Below are positions 14,494-21,846 of a DNA stretch of 64,000 nucleotides, piece after piece; position 1 is the stretch's first letter, and each line of letters starts with the position of its first letter. The stretch is from Chitinivorax sp. PXF-14 (GTDB lineage: Bacteria; Pseudomonadota; Gammaproteobacteria; Burkholderiales; SCOH01): the NCBI RefSeq assembly GCF_040812015.1, contig NZ_JBFNXJ010000014.1, forward strand, positions 62,001 through 126,000. Reading direction: 5' to 3'. The notes beneath the pieces were generated by a model that had not been told where the DNA came from, made no database searches, and saw only the letters and a program-made list of their open reading frames with translations. The position numbers and the translations under genes were made by a program.

Positions 14494-14713
14494 CGCAATC
14501 CACCTGCCGTGTCAGGAAAGAATCGAAGTGATGTACAAACTGCTGGATACACGTCACCCGCGACAACATGCCGACACATCGACGGCATGCGAGCACATCG
14601 CCACAAGCAACGCCGGCCCGCAAACAGTTGCAGGCCCGTGATGGCATTCTAGTTGGGGGGTAGCACTATTTCACCACAAGCATTTGTCATGCCATACCGC
14701 GCAGCCAAAAGCT

Positions 14714-14733
14714 CGGGGCGCCATAGCGCCCCG
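14714..14733 (-). terminator. Probable terminator after the fatty acyl reductase gene
   Basis: GC-rich perfect 8-bp stem (14714-14721 with 14726-14733), loop of four bases, followed on the minus strand by AGCTTTTGG, a short T tract. It lies about 55 bases beyond the end of the reductase gene and closes the three-gene lipid unit. Confidence 0.5.
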
Positions 14734-14786
14734 ATATACAGAAGGAAATAGCCCCCCCCGTGCCGCTGCGGCATGTGCCCAGGGGA

Positions 14787-16334
14787 TCAGGAGGAGCGGG
14801 CCTCGGCGGGATTCAGCGCAGCTTGGGCCACGCCAGTGGTGTCGGCTACCGGTTTACGCCTTTCCTTCAGTGCATAACGGTTCAGCCCCGCCATGTGTAC
14901 GTCGCCCAGATAGTGCTTCCAGTCAATCAATGCCGAATCGACCGGGAAGCGGCCCCGCCCCGACTCGCCGACACGTGCCGCGAGTGCCAGCAATTTGCTG
15001 TTGTAGAAGCAGTAGCTCGGCGAGGTATAGAACGAGAACACCACGGCAAGCCCCTGCGTGGCCTTCAGACTCTCGAAGGCGCGCAACGGCGTTTTCACGC
15101 CAATCAGCTTGCGGCCCGCATCGAACAGGGTCAACGCTGCCTTGGCCGCAGCCAGCCCAGCCAGAAATACCGTCCGGCTGGTGGTGCGGAACGGCCGACT
15201 CGGGGCCTTGAAGAACAGCCGATCATAGCGCTGCCAGTTACGTCGGGCTTCATCCTGCAGCAGATCGATCAATTGCCCCAACTGGATGGGATTGCGGCTT
15301 CCGCTGCAGCATTGATAGATGCGCTGTCTACCGGGCTCAAGTATCGCCTCGGCGGCGGACAAAAGAACGCTGTTAGCGACCAGATCGGCCGGGATGATGT
15401 CGATGATCTCGTCAGTCTTGGCCGGGAAAAACCTCACCTTCTCGCGCGCATAAGCGAGGATGATGGCATCGGCCACCTTGACGCCCTCCACCCAGCCGGG
15501 GCTCGGCTCAAACAACGTGCTCTCGATGATGGATGGACGAAGAATGGTCAATGTCGAACGGCGCGTTGCCTTTAGCGCAACCTGCTCGCCCAACCACTTG
15601 GTAAAGGTATAGGTATCGTTCCAGCCGTAGGCATTGGCCTCCTTGATACCAAGGTCGATCAGCTTCTCGCTCAGCCTGCCGGTGTCGCCCCACTTGGCGC
15701 GCACCACACCGATTTTCTCCTGGAGCTGCCCAATCAGCCGCTCTACCTCATAGAAACCTTCCTGGTTGAACGGAATGGGCAAGCCGGTCGGATGCACCAA
15801 CTCTTCATGCATGGCACCACTATTGAAGCCGTTGACATAGCAGGTCGACACCTGCACCAGCGGGATGTCACCCGCCAGTCGCGCCAGCTCGGCGAGGTGA
15901 ATCACGCTGAAGGTGTTGATTTCCAGGGCCTGATCCAGCTCCTCGCGGAAGTTCACGCTCGCTGCGGCGTTGATGATCACGTCGATACGGCCGGCGAGTA
16001 GATTGAACTCCCGCTCGCTCAGACCAAGCCGTGGCTGGGTCACTTCGCCAGTCACGCAGTGGATGCGTTGCTCGCAAAACGTCTTCAAACCTTCCGCGCT
16101 GCGCTGCCGCAGCACATCGAAGATCGACGACGTCAGTACTTCGCGTTCAAAGCGTTGCTGCGACGTCGGATTGTCTCGGCTGCCACGCAGCAGCAGGACA
16201 ATCCCCCCCACATCGGGCACCTCCCGTATCAGCTTCTCGAGCACAACCTTGGCGAGAAAGCCGCTGGTGCCAGTAATCAAGACTCGCTTGCCGGCCAGCG
16301 CCCTGCCGACAAAAGTTGGTGCGGAAGTTGCCAT
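14787..16334 (-). CDS. Alcohol-forming fatty acyl-CoA/acyl-ACP reductase (Marinobacter FAR type)
   Basis: A 515-residue NAD(P)H-dependent reductase. The N-terminal extended short-chain dehydrogenase (Rossmann) domain has ITGTSGFLAKVVLEKLIREV, with the Gly motif at 20-29. Then come ASVNFREELD, VQVSTCYVNG and the catalytic Tyr-x3-Lys pair Y243/K247 within DTYTFTKWLGEQ. The C-terminal FAR_C-like half ends GLNRYALKERR. Length and these segments closely match, from memory, the roughly 510-residue Marinobacter reductase that takes acyl-CoA or fatty aldehyde to fatty alcohol. This type is uncommon in betaproteobacteria. It is the last gene of a unit with a methyltransferase and a DUF2156 protein, 48 bases after the latter. 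Substrate and final lipid are unknown. Confidence 0.87.
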   Translation of the reverse strand: MATSAPTFVGRALAGKRVLITGTSGFLAKVVLEKLIREVPDVGGIVLLLRGSRDNPTSQQRFEREVLTSSIFDVLRQRSAEGLKTFCEQRIHCVTGEVTQPRLGLSEREFNLLAGRIDVIINAAASVNFREELDQALEINTFSVIHLAELARLAGDIPLVQVSTCYVNGFNSGAMHEELVHPTGLPIPFNQEGFYEVERLIGQLQEKIGVVRAKWGDTGRLSEKLIDLGIKEANAYGWNDTYTFTKWLGEQVALKATRRSTLTILRPSIIESTLFEPSPGWVEGVKVADAIILAYAREKVRFFPAKTDEIIDIIPADLVANSVLLSAAEAILEPGRQRIYQCCSGSRNPIQLGQLIDLLQDEARRNWQRYDRLFFKAPSRPFRTTSRTVFLAGLAAAKAALTLFDAGRKLIGVKTPLRAFESLKATQGLAVVFSFYTSPSYCFYNSKLLALAARVGESGRGRFPVDSALIDWKHYLGDVHMAGLNRYALKERRKPVADTTGVAQAALNPAEARSS

Positions 16335-16382
16335 GATTCCCCCAAGACGATGCGTGCGGCCATCCGGCCTGTTTGTTGTTGT

Positions 16383-17393
16383 CTAGATGATGCGAGTGAG
16401 CCGGAACATGGCTACCATGGCCAATCCAGGTAGTGCATTGCGATGGCAGCAATAGGTCTTTTCGACCACCCCATTGAAGCGCGCCTTGGCGAACTCCAGC
16501 CCCTTGAAGTTGTAGAGCATGTCGCCGCGCTCACGGATGACAGCCATCATCTTGCGCAGGATCTTCGACTCCTGGGGCTCGTAGTCGTCCGCCAGCATCA
16601 GCGGCACCAGCCCCAAATCGACATAGGGCACGCCCTCACTGCGGAACACTTCCATCGCGTGAACCATGATGGCGTACCACAAGCCCTGTTTGAAGCTGGC
16701 ACAGGAGCGCGAGATATTGGGGACGTAGCTAATCAGCTTGCCGTTCTTGTATAGCGGGTCGAAAAAGATGTATGCGACGGCCTCGCCATTGTGATAGGCG
16801 TAGAAATAGCGGGTGTTTTCCTTGTAATCCATCAACATCGGACGGATCAGGAAGCGGATTTCGTTATTCTTGCAGCGCCGAGTCTTTATCCAGGCTTCCG
16901 AAATCTTCTTGGTGTAGCGATCAAACGGCCCTTCCTTGATCTCGATCCCTTGGGCGCGGGCCTGATTGATTGCGGTACGGATAATCTGTTTTTTTGACCC
17001 GCGAAGATTCCAGTCGCTCAGGCTGACCTTGGACTCGGAACCAAACTGGGTGCCATAGTAACTAAAGGACTGGTGCAGGATGTCGACAATCGGCTTGCTC
17101 ACCTGGGCGAACAACGCATTGGGAAAACGCTTGAGAAACTTGGTCAGCATCGGCTCGAAATACTTCGGCTCGCATACCGGATCGCCCAGCACGAACTGCA
17201 TCCCCCAGTACCGGGCATAGGCGATATAGCCAATGCCCGGCACGTCGAAGTACTCCATGTCGGACTGCATGGTGGAGAACGACTGAGAATGGACGCCGTG
17301 CTCCATCAGGTAAGCAACCCGCTCACCATGGCTAAAAGTACTGATTGACGGCGTAAGCGCTGCCCCGTCAAGCGTTAACGCTTGATTTCTCAT
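16383..17393 (-). CDS. DUF2156 / phosphatidylglycerol lysyltransferase-like GNAT-fold protein
   Basis: A 336-residue protein without signal peptide or clear TM helices. It resembles the DUF2156 family, the cytosolic catalytic domain of MprF-type aminoacyl-lipid synthases, built from two GNAT folds. Supporting segments are GIGYIAYARYWGMQFVLGDP near the N-terminus, the central TRYFYAYHNGEAVAYIFFDP, and the C-terminal EGVPYVDLGLVPL followed by a LYNFKGLEFAKARFNG stretch. The last two are typical of this fold. The start at 17393 is chosen because GAGGGG lies six bases before it; an in-frame ATG 18 bases upstream lacks a ribosome site. It sits between a methyltransferase and a fatty acyl reductase, so an acyl or aminoacyl transfer to a lipid is inferred, not shown. 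Confidence 0.72.
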   Translation of the reverse strand: MRNQALTLDGAALTPSISTFSHGERVAYLMEHGVHSQSFSTMQSDMEYFDVPGIGYIAYARYWGMQFVLGDPVCEPKYFEPMLTKFLKRFPNALFAQVSKPIVDILHQSFSYYGTQFGSESKVSLSDWNLRGSKKQIIRTAINQARAQGIEIKEGPFDRYTKKISEAWIKTRRCKNNEIRFLIRPMLMDYKENTRYFYAYHNGEAVAYIFFDPLYKNGKLISYVPNISRSCASFKQGLWYAIMVHAMEVFRSEGVPYVDLGLVPLMLADDYEPQESKILRKMMAVIRERGDMLYNFKGLEFAKARFNGVVEKTYCCHRNALPGLAMVAMFRLTRII

Positions 17394-17443
17394 GACATTC
17401 CCCTCATTCAACTATGATTTTTTGAGTGAAATCAGCTTTGCAC

Positions 17444-18091
17444 TCAGGCCGGCTTTTGCCCAAGCAACGACCAGTAGCAATTGAGTAGCAGGAGGCGGAA
17501 ATGTTTCTTCTCGGTGACCTCAAGGCCGAGCTGCCGCATGGTTTCGGGGTAGTTGTAGATGTTGTGGAAAGCGTTCTTGGTGAAGATCCAGAAGAACCCC
17601 ACGGCCCCATACCAGTAAATGACCTTGAACGCTCTCGACAGGACATTGCCGGTAGGATAGGAGAAATCACCGACAACAACCTTGGCGCCGGGCTTGCCAA
17701 GCTTGATCAGGTGCTGCAGCACCTTCAGCATCATGTCGCGCTGGAAGACATTCAGAAAGAAGTTGGCAACGACCATGTCGTAGCGTTCGAGCTCCTGGAA
17801 TTGAAGGATATCGCTGTGAACCTGGCGGATATGGATCTTGACGCCATTTTTCTCCAGGTTGCGCTGGAACTTCCGCAGCATGGTTTCCGACAGATCGACC
17901 ACGGTCACCTCGGCACCACGCTTGGCAGCGTATACCGCATCAATGCCGTGCCCCACCCCTGCGAACAGTACCTTATCGCCGGGCTTGAGGTGATCCAGCA
18001 TGGCGACCTTGCAGTGCTGGATGGACTTGCCGCTATACATATTGCTTAGAAAGTCGTAAAAGTGCCCGACAAATTTATAGTTATCCTTCAT
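17444..18091 (-). CDS. Class I SAM-dependent methyltransferase, probably lipid-linked
   Basis: A 215-residue protein. SAM-binding motif I is VLFAGVGHGID (about 41-51) with the acidic post-I residue in VTVVDLSETML. The motif II/III region is YDMVVANFFLNVF and PGAKVVVGDFSYP. Residues about 150-180 (VLSRAFKVIYWYGAVGFFWI) are hydrophobic and aromatic, suggesting membrane contact, as in phospholipid or quinone methyltransferases. The ATG at 18091 follows CAGGAG at good distance; a longer frame to 18148 has no ribosome site. It is first in the unit with the DUF2156 and reductase genes and has its own promoter. The substrate cannot be read from the sequence. Confidence 0.8.
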   Translation of the reverse strand: MKDNYKFVGHFYDFLSNMYSGKSIQHCKVAMLDHLKPGDKVLFAGVGHGIDAVYAAKRGAEVTVVDLSETMLRKFQRNLEKNGVKIHIRQVHSDILQFQELERYDMVVANFFLNVFQRDMMLKVLQHLIKLGKPGAKVVVGDFSYPTGNVLSRAFKVIYWYGAVGFFWIFTKNAFHNIYNYPETMRQLGLEVTEKKHFRLLLLNCYWSLLGQKPA

Positions 18092-18394
18092 TTCGCTCTC
18101 CTGACAGTTTCTCTTTCCGCGCGCTTTGGTCATGGCCGGCAGCGTCAACGGAGCCCCTCAAATCTATTCTCGCTAAAGCTATTGCTCTAATTTGATCCGA
18201 GTATAAGCTCTAGATAGAGACTTGTCATATGTTTTTTAGCTGGATTATCCAATCCCCACAAGGGTTTGTCATAGTGTCTAACACTCTGAAAATCCGAGCA
18301 AAACAAAGACGATGTGCGGCGCACGGGCACAACGAAAATGGAGAATGTCACATCCGAGATATGGCGGCAGACGGAACGACGGGTCGGTATCGAA
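18092..18394. other. AT-rich intergenic region upstream of the methyltransferase
   Basis: About 300 bases with visibly lower GC than its neighbours. The only element identified is the sigma-70 promoter at 18200-18228. The stretch 18229-18394 shows no convincing ORF, terminator or RNA gene; open frames reading through it have no ribosome site and no recognisable product. Confidence 0.5.
18200..18228 (-). promoter_or_regulatory. Sigma-70 promoter for the methyltransferase-DUF2156-reductase unit
   Basis: On the minus strand: -35 ATGACA (18228-18223), 17-bp spacer, -10 TATACT (18205-18200). Five of six positions match consensus in each hexamer. Predicted start about 18193, giving a roughly 100-base leader before the methyltransferase ATG. 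The spacer contains the palindrome CTCTAGAGC-like core (TCTATCTAGAG), possibly a regulator site. Confidence 0.7.
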
Positions 18395-20467: not shown

Positions 20468-21637
20468 TCAATTGCCGCTGCCGAAGGGAATAAGCTGCCA
20501 TTCCCCACCGACACTACGAAGCTCACGATCGACGTTGAGTTCACCCTGGTGCGCTGCATGACCGGGCAAATCAACGACGACAATTTCCTGTTGCGCACGC
20601 AGCGATCGAATTGCCTGCTGCAGCACGACATCTTCTGGCGCATATGGCGCCAGGATGGCTTTTTGCGGCTCACCAAGCGCCAAGCGCCCAGTCAATTCCC
20701 GCAGGTCAAAACAAAATCCGGTCGCAGGACGCGCCCGGCCAAATTCTCGGCCGGCATTGTCATAGCGCCCCCCCCAAGCCAGCGCATTGGGCCAGCCAGC
20801 GGCATAGGCCGCGAAAACCAAACCGTTATGATAATGCGCCCCACGCAGCTCCACCAAATCAAAACATAGCTCGTCCAGTGATGACGCGAATGCTTTTTGC
20901 ACAGCGCGCAAGTCAGCCAGTGCCTGTTGGATCGCGGGCAAAGGCGGCAGGCTTGCTGCGGCAAGATCAAGCACCTCGACCCCGCCATTGAGTGTCGACA
21001 GCAGCTTGAATACGCGCCCAGTCTCTGCCGCCATGGTGGAAACCAGCACATCGAGCTCTGCCGCATCCTTACGCTGGTAGGCCCCGAACAGGCCGTCGAT
21101 CTGATCTTCAGACAACTTGAAGTGGTCGACCAGCGAACGGAAGATGCGCATATCCCCAACATCGAGGTTGACACGTTCAATCCCCAACAGCTTCAAGCTG
21201 TCGAACATCAGTTGAATAACTTCGAGATCGGCCTCCACCCCTGCATGGCCGTAGATCTCGGCCCCCAGCTGGAGTTGTTCGCGGCTCCCCAGCAAGTTGG
21301 CCGGCAGCGTATGGACAACGGTACCGGCATAGCACAGCCGGGCGACGCCTTCGCGATTCAACAGGTGTGCGTCAAGTCGCGCCACCTGTGGTGAAATATC
21401 AGCGCGAAGCCCCATCTGGCGCCCACTGAGCTGATCCACCAACTTGAAAGTCTTCAAGTCCAGATCATCATCTGCATTGCCGATCAAGGACTCGACATAT
21501 TCGATAAGCGGCGGGCTGACCAGGTCATAACCGCTTGCATGAAACAGATCGAGTACGGCACGGCGCTTCTCCTCAACCAGGCGCGCTTCAGCCGGCAGGA
21601 TATCGGCGATGTACTCGGGCAACAACCAACGGTGCAT
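20468..21637 (-). CDS. hisZ: ATP phosphoribosyltransferase regulatory subunit HisZ
   Basis: A 389-residue catalytically inactive histidyl-tRNA synthetase paralogue that activates short-form HisG, the first enzyme of histidine synthesis. The start MHRWLLPEYIADILP is the normal HisZ N-terminus; an upstream open extension to 21769 runs into the next gene and is discarded. Class II synthetase-like segments are present (FKLVDQLSGRQMGLRADISP, ARLCYAGTVVHTLP, LAWGGRYDNAG). No anticodon-binding domain follows. A true hisS lies at 28.7 kb. hisZ beside purA is common in betaproteobacteria. Its partner hisG is not in the window. Confidence 0.94.
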   Translation of the reverse strand: MHRWLLPEYIADILPAEARLVEEKRRAVLDLFHASGYDLVSPPLIEYVESLIGNADDDLDLKTFKLVDQLSGRQMGLRADISPQVARLDAHLLNREGVARLCYAGTVVHTLPANLLGSREQLQLGAEIYGHAGVEADLEVIQLMFDSLKLLGIERVNLDVGDMRIFRSLVDHFKLSEDQIDGLFGAYQRKDAAELDVLVSTMAAETGRVFKLLSTLNGGVEVLDLAAASLPPLPAIQQALADLRAVQKAFASSLDELCFDLVELRGAHYHNGLVFAAYAAGWPNALAWGGRYDNAGREFGRARPATGFCFDLRELTGRLALGEPQKAILAPYAPEDVVLQQAIRSLRAQQEIVVVDLPGHAAHQGELNVDRELRSVGGEWQLIPFGSGN

Positions 21638-21660
21638 TACAACTCTCGCAAATTCGATAC

Positions 21661-21846
21661 TCAGAGGACAAAGGCCAGCAGCCCCAGTCCAACCATCATT
21701 GACAGCAAGCCCAGGAAGCGCAGCTGGCCATCTGAAAACGTGATAAGGCGGGAGAATGTCTCCCGCCATACCTTGGGCAACAACAGAGGCATCGCCCCTT
21801 CCAACACCAGCATCAGAGCCAGGGCGGACAGGAGCGTGACACTCAT
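21661..21846 (-). CDS. Small inner-membrane protein, DUF2065 (YjeT-like)
   Basis: A 61-residue protein with two hydrophobic helices: MSVTLLSALALMLVLEGAMP at the start and a GLLSMMVGLGLLAFVL end. Between them is the family LLLPKVWRETFSRL...RFLGLL region. The length and its place directly after hflC (the start abuts the hflC stop) identify the YjeT/DUF2065 family, usually found between hflC and purA. Function unknown; membrane location and conserved linkage suggest it belongs with the HflKC complex. Confidence 0.85.
   Translation of the reverse strand: MSVTLLSALALMLVLEGAMPLLLPKVWRETFSRLITFSDGQLRFLGLLSMMVGLGLLAFVL

What the first reader, a model, noticed from the sequence alone, without database searches (positions are those of the whole stretch)
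14787..18228. Three-gene lipid cassette: methyltransferase, DUF2156 acyltransferase-like protein and alcohol-forming fatty acyl reductase
Seen: three same-strand genes with 50 and 48 bp gaps, a strong single promoter (18200-18228) and a terminator after the last gene. The reductase has the Rossmann motif, the Y243-x3-K247 pair and several segments I recall from Marinobacter FAR. Known: FAR enzymes make fatty alcohols, DUF2156 domains transfer aminoacyl or acyl groups to lipids, and small methyltransferases modify lipid head groups. Inference: the unit makes a modified alkyl lipid, such as a methylated or aminoacylated fatty-alcohol derivative, not described for this group. No wax ester synthase is adjacent, so classical storage wax is not the obvious product.
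Basis: partly seen in the sequence, partly recalled or inferred. Interest (0 to 1): 0.78.

Follow-up and report, generated by a model that had tools for sequence, protein, structure and literature searches.

The report
Conserved fatty-alcohol lipid gene module
Three neighbouring genes, one making fatty alcohols and two that look like an amino-acid-transferring enzyme and a methyl-adding enzyme, recur together in distantly related bacteria, which suggests that a well-studied wax-making enzyme has two overlooked partners that may build an undescribed lipid.

Summary
In detail: on the minus strand lie a SAM methyltransferase (MT), a free-standing DUF2156/LPG_synthase_C protein and a FarA-type fatty acyl reductase (FAR), with 50 and 48 bp gaps, a promoter conserved in two other genera and a terminator-like hairpin. 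In genus g296 (Marinobacter, inferred), of 120 genomes 95 have both close DUF2156 and FAR, 12 FAR only, 1 DUF2156 only (58% complete), 12 neither. In 93 of the 95 they share a contig, 1.1-8.3 kb apart; MT abuts DUF2156 in 30 of 30 fetched loci. In 322 genomes of that order (11 of the 15 DUF2156 genomes are again g296), all 15 with close DUF2156 have FAR (33 do), though in 3 they are unlinked. FarA is a studied wax-ester enzyme, and the window's genome has a wax ester synthase with a second reductase on another contig, so 'not wax' is not established. Best mechanism: FAR makes fatty alcohol, DUF2156 O-aminoacylates it from aminoacyl-tRNA, MT methylates the product. Only the gene association and enzyme families are shown; substrates and product are inferred. 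New variant of known kinds.

The parts
17444..18091 (-). class I SAM-dependent methyltransferase, 215 aa, first gene of the unit
   Evidence: 79% identical in G001, 64-68% in 30 loci of genus g296
16383..17393 (-). free-standing DUF2156 / LPG_synthase_C (PF09924) protein, 336 aa, no flippase domain
   Evidence: 72-75% identical in two other genera of the family, 57-60% in 30 loci of genus g296
14787..16334 (-). FarA-type alcohol-forming fatty acyl reductase, 515 aa (NAD_binding_4 + Sterile domain)
18200..18228 (-). sigma-70-like promoter ATGACA-17-TATACT, conserved with flanking TAGAG repeats in two other genera
18275..18283 (-). TGTTAGACA palindrome-like element, 192 bases upstream of the MT start; TTGTCNGACA-type elements lie upstream of the MT in several other lineages
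14713..14734 (-). terminator-like hairpin (9 pairs) after the FAR gene, short T run

Best explanation
A three-gene lipid module. Step 1 (family membership shown, activity inferred from FarA): FAR reduces long-chain acyl-CoA or acyl-ACP to fatty alcohol with NADPH. Step 2 (inferred): the free-standing DUF2156 protein takes an aminoacyl group from an aminoacyl-tRNA of the general pool and transfers it to a hydroxyl, most likely that of the fatty alcohol, giving an O-aminoacyl alkyl ester. Step 3 (inferred): the methyltransferase methylates that product, probably on the amino group. The conserved association of the genes is shown; donor, acceptor, order of steps and product are not.
For: MT-DUF-FAR contiguous on one strand in G000 and G001; DUF-FAR in G004 with an MT remnant upstream. 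Genus g296: both in 95 of 120, DUF without FAR in 1 of 120 (Fisher p = 3e-9, not corrected for descent); same contig in 93 of 95, gap 1.1-8.3 kb. MT adjacent to DUF in 30 of 30 loci fetched, out of 96 DUF genomes; MT-DUF directly divergent from FAR in the four shortest-gap loci, which I picked for that. Order of G489: 15 of 15 close-DUF genomes have FAR against 18 of 307 others; 11 of the 15 are g296 genomes already counted; 5 of 5 DUF genera lie among 10 FAR genera of 125. DUF2156 matches solved Lys-PG and Ala-PG synthases and a VlmA-like protein whose record also has serS and a VlmB-like gene. Precedents seen as passages: VlmA makes O-seryl-isobutylhydroxylamine, and its homologue Ady7 is proposed to act on a fatty-acid-derived alkyl hydroxylamine with tRNA from the cell pool (PMC9379638); ErdS aspartylates ergosterol (PMC9437257).
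Against: No substrate is tested. Where the three MprF chains printed have D-L-M-R and the VlmA-like protein has D-L-S-R, the close members all have V-P-N-I-S-R, so aminoacyl handling may differ. FAR occurs without DUF in 12 of 120 g296 genomes and in 17 of 17 FAR genomes of families f305 and f309, so FAR has another role. In G826, G861 and G881 DUF and FAR are unlinked. The TGTYNRACA element is upstream of MT but in 0 of 67 (redundant) FAR upstream regions, so in g296 the two units seem separately controlled. By eye no aminoacyl-tRNA synthetase gene stands near the cassette, except a HisZ-like gene (a HisRS paralogue) at 20468-21769.
Confidence: 0.38

Rival explanations
1. The FAR feeds wax esters, as FarA does in Marinobacter, and the MT-DUF2156 pair modifies a different lipid (for example a phospholipid head group). 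The genes travel together because both matter in the same condition, such as carbon excess and nitrogen limitation, not because they share an intermediate.
For: Same genome has WS/DGAT (TIGR02946, 399.9 bits, cut-off 309.95) divergent from a PRK07201-type reductase. In VT8 a farA deletion greatly lowers wax esters; in CP1 only the farA acrB double mutant nearly loses them (PMC6308636, passages). FAR is found without DUF in many genomes. The upstream element of MT is not upstream of FAR.
Against: Close DUF2156 hardly ever occurs without FAR (1 of 96 in g296; 0 of 15 in the order sample, which overlaps), even where unlinked, and in family f1 they form one apparent operon.
Confidence: 0.32
2. DUF2156 here is not tRNA-dependent: the D-to-N change in the DLxR motif marks a subfamily that transfers another acyl group, so the product is an ordinary acylated and methylated fatty-alcohol derivative.
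For: Invariant N-I-S-R in 29 aligned members and N-[IF]-x-R in three distant ones, against D-L-M-R in the printed MprF chains and D-L-S-R in the VlmA-like protein.
Against: Residues shared by all ten diverse sequences aligned, VlmA-like protein included (among them R139, E154, W168, R195, R229, K303), are kept. That this D is important is recalled; the paper search for it returned nothing.
Confidence: 0.15
3. The association is only shared descent and chance synteny: one ancestral arrangement in g296 and one transfer to family f1.
For: All 93 same-contig pairs in g296 have the same opposite orientation and most have a gap near 6.9 kb; the gene trees fit few transfers.
Against: Two different arrangements (operon in f1, divergent in g296), co-occurrence without linkage in families f291 and f316, and absence of DUF in 12 of 13 g296 genomes that lack FAR.
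Confidence: 0.13

Closest known systems
Marinobacter FarA (fatty aldehyde / acyl reductase; Maqu_2220 by description)
   Same: FAR is 54-57% identical to FAR of the 30 g296 loci L079-L108, 52-55% in four more; published farA primers of M. atlanticus CP1 match two of those loci without mismatch, one at the STCYVNG motif; same PF07993 + PF03015 make-up.
   Different: In family f1 it is in one apparent operon with MT and DUF2156; the passages seen here do not mention such neighbours.
MprF synthase domain / tRNA-dependent PG aminoacyltransferases
   Same: Same PF09924 family.
   Different: No flippase domain; NISR instead of DLMR; paired with MT; NF033480 86.7 bits against cut-off 600.
VlmA / Ady7 aminoacyl-tRNA:hydroxylamine transferases of azoxy clusters
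   Same: Free-standing DUF2156; profile match to a VlmA-like protein, 98.5% probability; the azodyrecin cluster also has an aldehyde-making step, a VlmA homologue and a methyltransferase.
   Different: No N-hydroxylase, aminotransferase, VlmB or VlmO gene seen by eye among the ORFs of window 10-24 kb; 22% identity.
AcrB (Maqu_2507)-WS/DGAT wax ester locus
   Same: The same genome has a WS/DGAT beside a PRK07201-type reductase on another contig; Maqu_2507-like genes near WS/DGAT are reported in betaproteobacterial scaffolds (PMC10351704, passages).
   Different: A separate locus and another reductase type (NF005539, 1001.9 bits).
corrinoid protein-associated methyltransferase CpaM (NF043040)
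   Same: Best NCBIfam match of the MT (88.9 bits).
   Different: Far under the cut-off of 180; no corrinoid gene noticed beside it, none sought by profile.

Membership tests
FarA-type alcohol-forming fatty acyl reductase | PF07993 Rossmann domain with TGxxGF and YxxxK | tested here: met
   (T21-F26; Y242/K246 invariant in three genera)
FarA-type alcohol-forming fatty acyl reductase | C-terminal PF03015 Sterile domain | tested here: met
   35.8 bits, cut-off 35.4; at E 1e-5 in 4 of 398 sampled phylum genomes, the own genome and three of g296
FarA-type alcohol-forming fatty acyl reductase | reduces acyl-CoA/ACP to alcohol | not testable with these tools
   inferred from 54-57% identity; activity of Maqu_2220 from PMC10355004 passages
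MprF (bifunctional Lys-PG flippase/synthetase) | LPG_synthase_C domain | tested here: met
MprF (bifunctional Lys-PG flippase/synthetase) | N-terminal flippase domain and NF033480 cut-off | tested here: not met
   336 aa, synthase part only; 86.7 bits against 600
tRNA-dependent DUF2156 aminoacyltransferase | uses aminoacyl-tRNA | not testable with these tools
   homology only
tRNA-dependent DUF2156 aminoacyltransferase | D-L-x-R motif of the MprF and VlmA-like sequences aligned | tested here: not met
   N226-I-S-R229; that the D matters is recalled, so this is a mark of difference rather than a proven requirement
CpaM methyltransferase | NF043040 score | tested here: not met
   88.9 bits against 180
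azoxy (VlmA/Ady) biosynthetic cluster | N-hydroxylase and VlmB/VlmO-like genes beside DUF2156 | tested here: inconclusive
   none seen by eye among ORFs of window 10-24 kb; no profile search of the neighbours was made
wax ester pathway | WS/DGAT in the genome | tested here: met
   contig C20; not adjacent to the cassette

The most novel reading that the evidence does not exclude
The module makes a new lipid class, an N-methylated O-aminoacyl ester of a long-chain fatty alcohol (a cationic 'amino wax'), by tRNA-dependent aminoacylation of the alcohol that FarA supplies, in most Marinobacter and in some Betaproteobacteria (both names inferred).
Probability: 0.22. Interest if true: 0.85.

Novelty: new variant of a known kind. 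Interest (0 to 1): 0.6.

Why it matters
FarA is much used for biotechnological fatty alcohols and is studied as a wax-ester enzyme. If two conserved genes go with it through evolution, part of its natural role has been overlooked, and a lipid carrying an amino acid and methyl groups could be present in common marine bacteria. The prediction is testable at once, since Marinobacter atlanticus CP1 and VT8 have farA deletions (PMC6308636, passages).

Tried and rejected
PF07993 alone is no marker: 10 places in the own genome and all 14 control genomes match it. Plasmid searches found distant homologues only: DUF2156 in 37 records, all under 60% identity (15 rows seen, 24.0-29.4%), FAR in 14, all under 60%. 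The four alphaproteobacterial DUF2156 places looked at have an annotated NAD(P)/FAD oxidoreductase next to DUF2156 and no annotated MT or FAR (these gene tables are incomplete); the Streptomyces FAR record had no annotation there. The two MT-like genes of G002 (45-48%) have no DUF2156 beside them, and its FAR contig ends about 150 bases upstream of the gene, so it cannot say whether DUF2156 is there. G003, 100% complete, has none of the three. A shared TGTYNRACA element upstream of MT and FAR: rejected. acrB-F784 primer: no match within 4 mismatches in any locus; acrB-R978 matches L019 with 3 but other loci with 4, so this primer test for AcrB is weak. Taxon of the window: not named by any search; 'Betaproteobacteria' is my guess from the genes. 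'Marinobacter' for g296 is inferred from the primer match and from recall.

Dropped rows: distant DUF2156 hits (E above 1e-100: second copies in 8 g296 genomes, G941, G376, third copy of G861, G133, G208, G116, G097, G011) were left out of the close-DUF counts; the partial g296 hit of G727 (1.7e-60) was kept in the 96. The upstream-element count over 67 loci is redundant (one genome may appear several times); the count 26 of 30 uses L049-L078 only (absent in L052, L054, L065, L077), and the shuffles there were of single bases.
Full report
What is there. The minus strand of window 14787-18091 holds three genes read in the order MT, DUF2156, FAR, with gaps of 50 and 48 bp. Pfam gives a class I SAM methyltransferase, LPG_synthase_C (PF09924, the DUF2156 family) and NAD_binding_4 plus Sterile. 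The YxxxK pair is Y242/K246 from the ATG. Better evidence for the promoter is that the block ATATGACA...TAGAGCTTATACTC...TAGAGnAATAnCTTT is kept upstream of the MT, or of its remnant, in two other genera.

Who has it. The window is part of a 4.42 Mb genome, G000. Close DUF2156 is in 3 of the 5 genomes of its family that were searched: G000, G001, G004. FAR is in 4 of the 5 (also G002). G001 has MT-DUF-FAR in the same order beside the same upstream genes; G004 has DUF-FAR in another place with an MT remnant of 46 codons upstream, the start and the end of the protein with the middle missing. G003 has none. In a sample of 274 genomes of the class, FAR at E 1e-30 is in 1, the window's own; DUF2156 at E 1e-10 is in 5, of which only the window's own is close. 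The Sterile domain, at E 1e-5, occurs in 4 of 398 sampled genomes of the phylum: the window's own and three of genus g296.

The linkage recurs. In g296, two of the three genomes first read have MT-DUF adjacent and FAR about 7 kb away; the third, G392, has FAR only. Over 120 genomes of the genus: DUF2156 in 96, FAR in 107; both 95, FAR only 12, DUF only 1 (G791, 58% complete), neither 12; Fisher p = 3e-9 without correction for descent. Of the 95, 93 have both on one contig, always on opposite strands, 1.1-8.3 kb apart, median 6.9 kb; in the other 2 they lie on different contigs. The MT is next to DUF2156 on the same strand in 30 of 30 loci fetched, the best-scoring of 96. In G810, G751, G818 and G788, picked for their short gaps, MT-DUF is directly divergent from FAR.

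Co-occurrence beyond linkage. In 322 genomes of the order of G489, close DUF2156 (E below 1e-100) is in 15, and all 15 have FAR; 33 genomes have FAR. Eleven of the 15 are g296 genomes, so this sample overlaps the first. At genus level, 5 DUF genera all lie among 10 FAR genera of 125 (p = 1e-6 if genera were independent); outside family f223, 3 of 3 DUF genomes have FAR while 20 of 309 genomes do (p = 2e-4 on the same assumption). Those three, G826, G861 and G881, have MT next to DUF2156, but FAR elsewhere. FAR without DUF is found in 17 of 17 FAR genomes of families f305 and f309. So DUF2156 goes with FAR, not the reverse. This is the pattern expected if MT-DUF acts downstream of FAR in one of several uses of fatty alcohol; it is also what a shared life style could give.

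What the FAR is. It is 54-57% identical to the g296 proteins of 30 loci. The farA primers published for M. atlanticus CP1 match two of these loci without mismatch, so this is the FarA type; that FarA is Maqu_2220 follows from its description as fatty aldehyde reductase in PMC6308636 and PMC12358690 (passages). Maqu_2220 and Maqu_2507 accept acyl-CoA and acyl-ACP (PMC10355004, passages). In VT8 a farA deletion greatly diminished wax esters, whereas in CP1 single deletions raised them and only the double mutant nearly lost them (PMC6308636, passages). The window's genome also has a WS/DGAT beside a PRK07201-type reductase on contig C20. That this second reductase is AcrB-like is recalled; the primer test for it was weak.

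What the DUF2156 protein is. It is the synthase half of the MprF family without the flippase. Its close members are marked by VPNISR where the three MprF chains printed have DLMR and a VlmA-like protein has DLSR; three rhizobial-type relatives have neither. I recall the D and R as important in Ala-PG synthase; a literature search found nothing. R139, E154, W168, R195, R229 and K303 are among the residues invariant in ten diverse members. Precedents for an acceptor other than PG are ergosterol (PMC9437257, passages) and alkyl hydroxylamines, including a proposed fatty-acid-derived one with no dedicated tRNA synthetase (PMC9379638, passages). A distant MT-DUF pair in G941 sits near a ketosynthase, an FAD oxidoreductase and a 368 aa reductase (named from sequence by eye), again a reductase with DUF2156 and MT.

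What the MT is. Its SAM-binding glycine motif looks intact by eye. No curated family claims it: the best NCBIfam match, NF043040, gives 88.9 bits against 180, and PDB matches are weak and mixed, to tRNA, ribosomal-protein, phosphoethanolamine and other methyltransferases. Its substrate is unknown.

Regulation. A TGTYNRACA element (mostly TTGTCNGACA) lies 74-232 bases upstream of the MT in 26 of 30 g296 loci, and also in the window, G881 and G965 and G004. G001, G826 and G861 lack it. Over all 67 redundant MT loci it is in 48, against 1.6 in shuffles. In the window as a whole the pattern is no commoner than chance (3 against 2.5), so the argument rests on position across lineages, some of it shared descent. 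It is absent upstream of FAR (0 of 67, redundant loci).

History. In trees, family f1 groups beside f223 for MT and DUF2156, and beside f223 plus f305 for FAR (FastTree, midpoint root), compatible with transfer as a set. No test of topology was made.

Judgement. Conserved module: about 0.87. FAR making alcohol: about 0.9. DUF2156 as tRNA-dependent aminoacyltransferase: about 0.5. The whole mechanism: 0.38. Print: in the open-access library no title or abstract start listed named the trio (one search showed 25 of 38 papers, 10 of 157). Only PMC10351704 was searched inside for 'methyltransferase' and 'DUF2156', with no occurrence. Subscription papers, among them Lenneman 2013, were not seen.

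Noticed in passing
L019:5394-9120 (G000 contig C20, outside the window): WS/DGAT gene divergent from a 685 aa PRK07201-type reductase, a likely wax ester locus; two patatin-like genes follow (named by eye).
   Followed up: partly
L011:9532-9672: MT remnant in G004: start and end of the protein in one frame, the middle missing; the DUF2156 and FAR frames beside it are open.
   Followed up: yes
L135:6970-12820: G941: distant MT-DUF2156 pair near a ketosynthase, an FAD oxidoreductase and a thioester-reductase-like protein (named by eye); looks like an unstudied lipid or polyketide cluster.
   Followed up: partly
L133:8946-10079 and L134:9152-10198: Second DUF2156 copies in G826 and G861 without MT, upstream of a large protein that starts like a LuxR/MalT-type regulator (by eye).
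   Followed up: no
upstream of MT, window 18275-18283 and L049-L078: TTGTCNGACA-type palindrome kept in several lineages; its regulator is unknown.
   Followed up: partly
G755:C1:2033750-2035242: FAR is found as two overlapping pieces in one g296 genome, so it may be frameshifted there.
   Followed up: no
L168:589-7930: Streptomyces lavendulae plasmid with serS, VlmB-like, flavin reductase and DUF2156 genes, an azoxy-type cluster by its gene names.
   Followed up: partly
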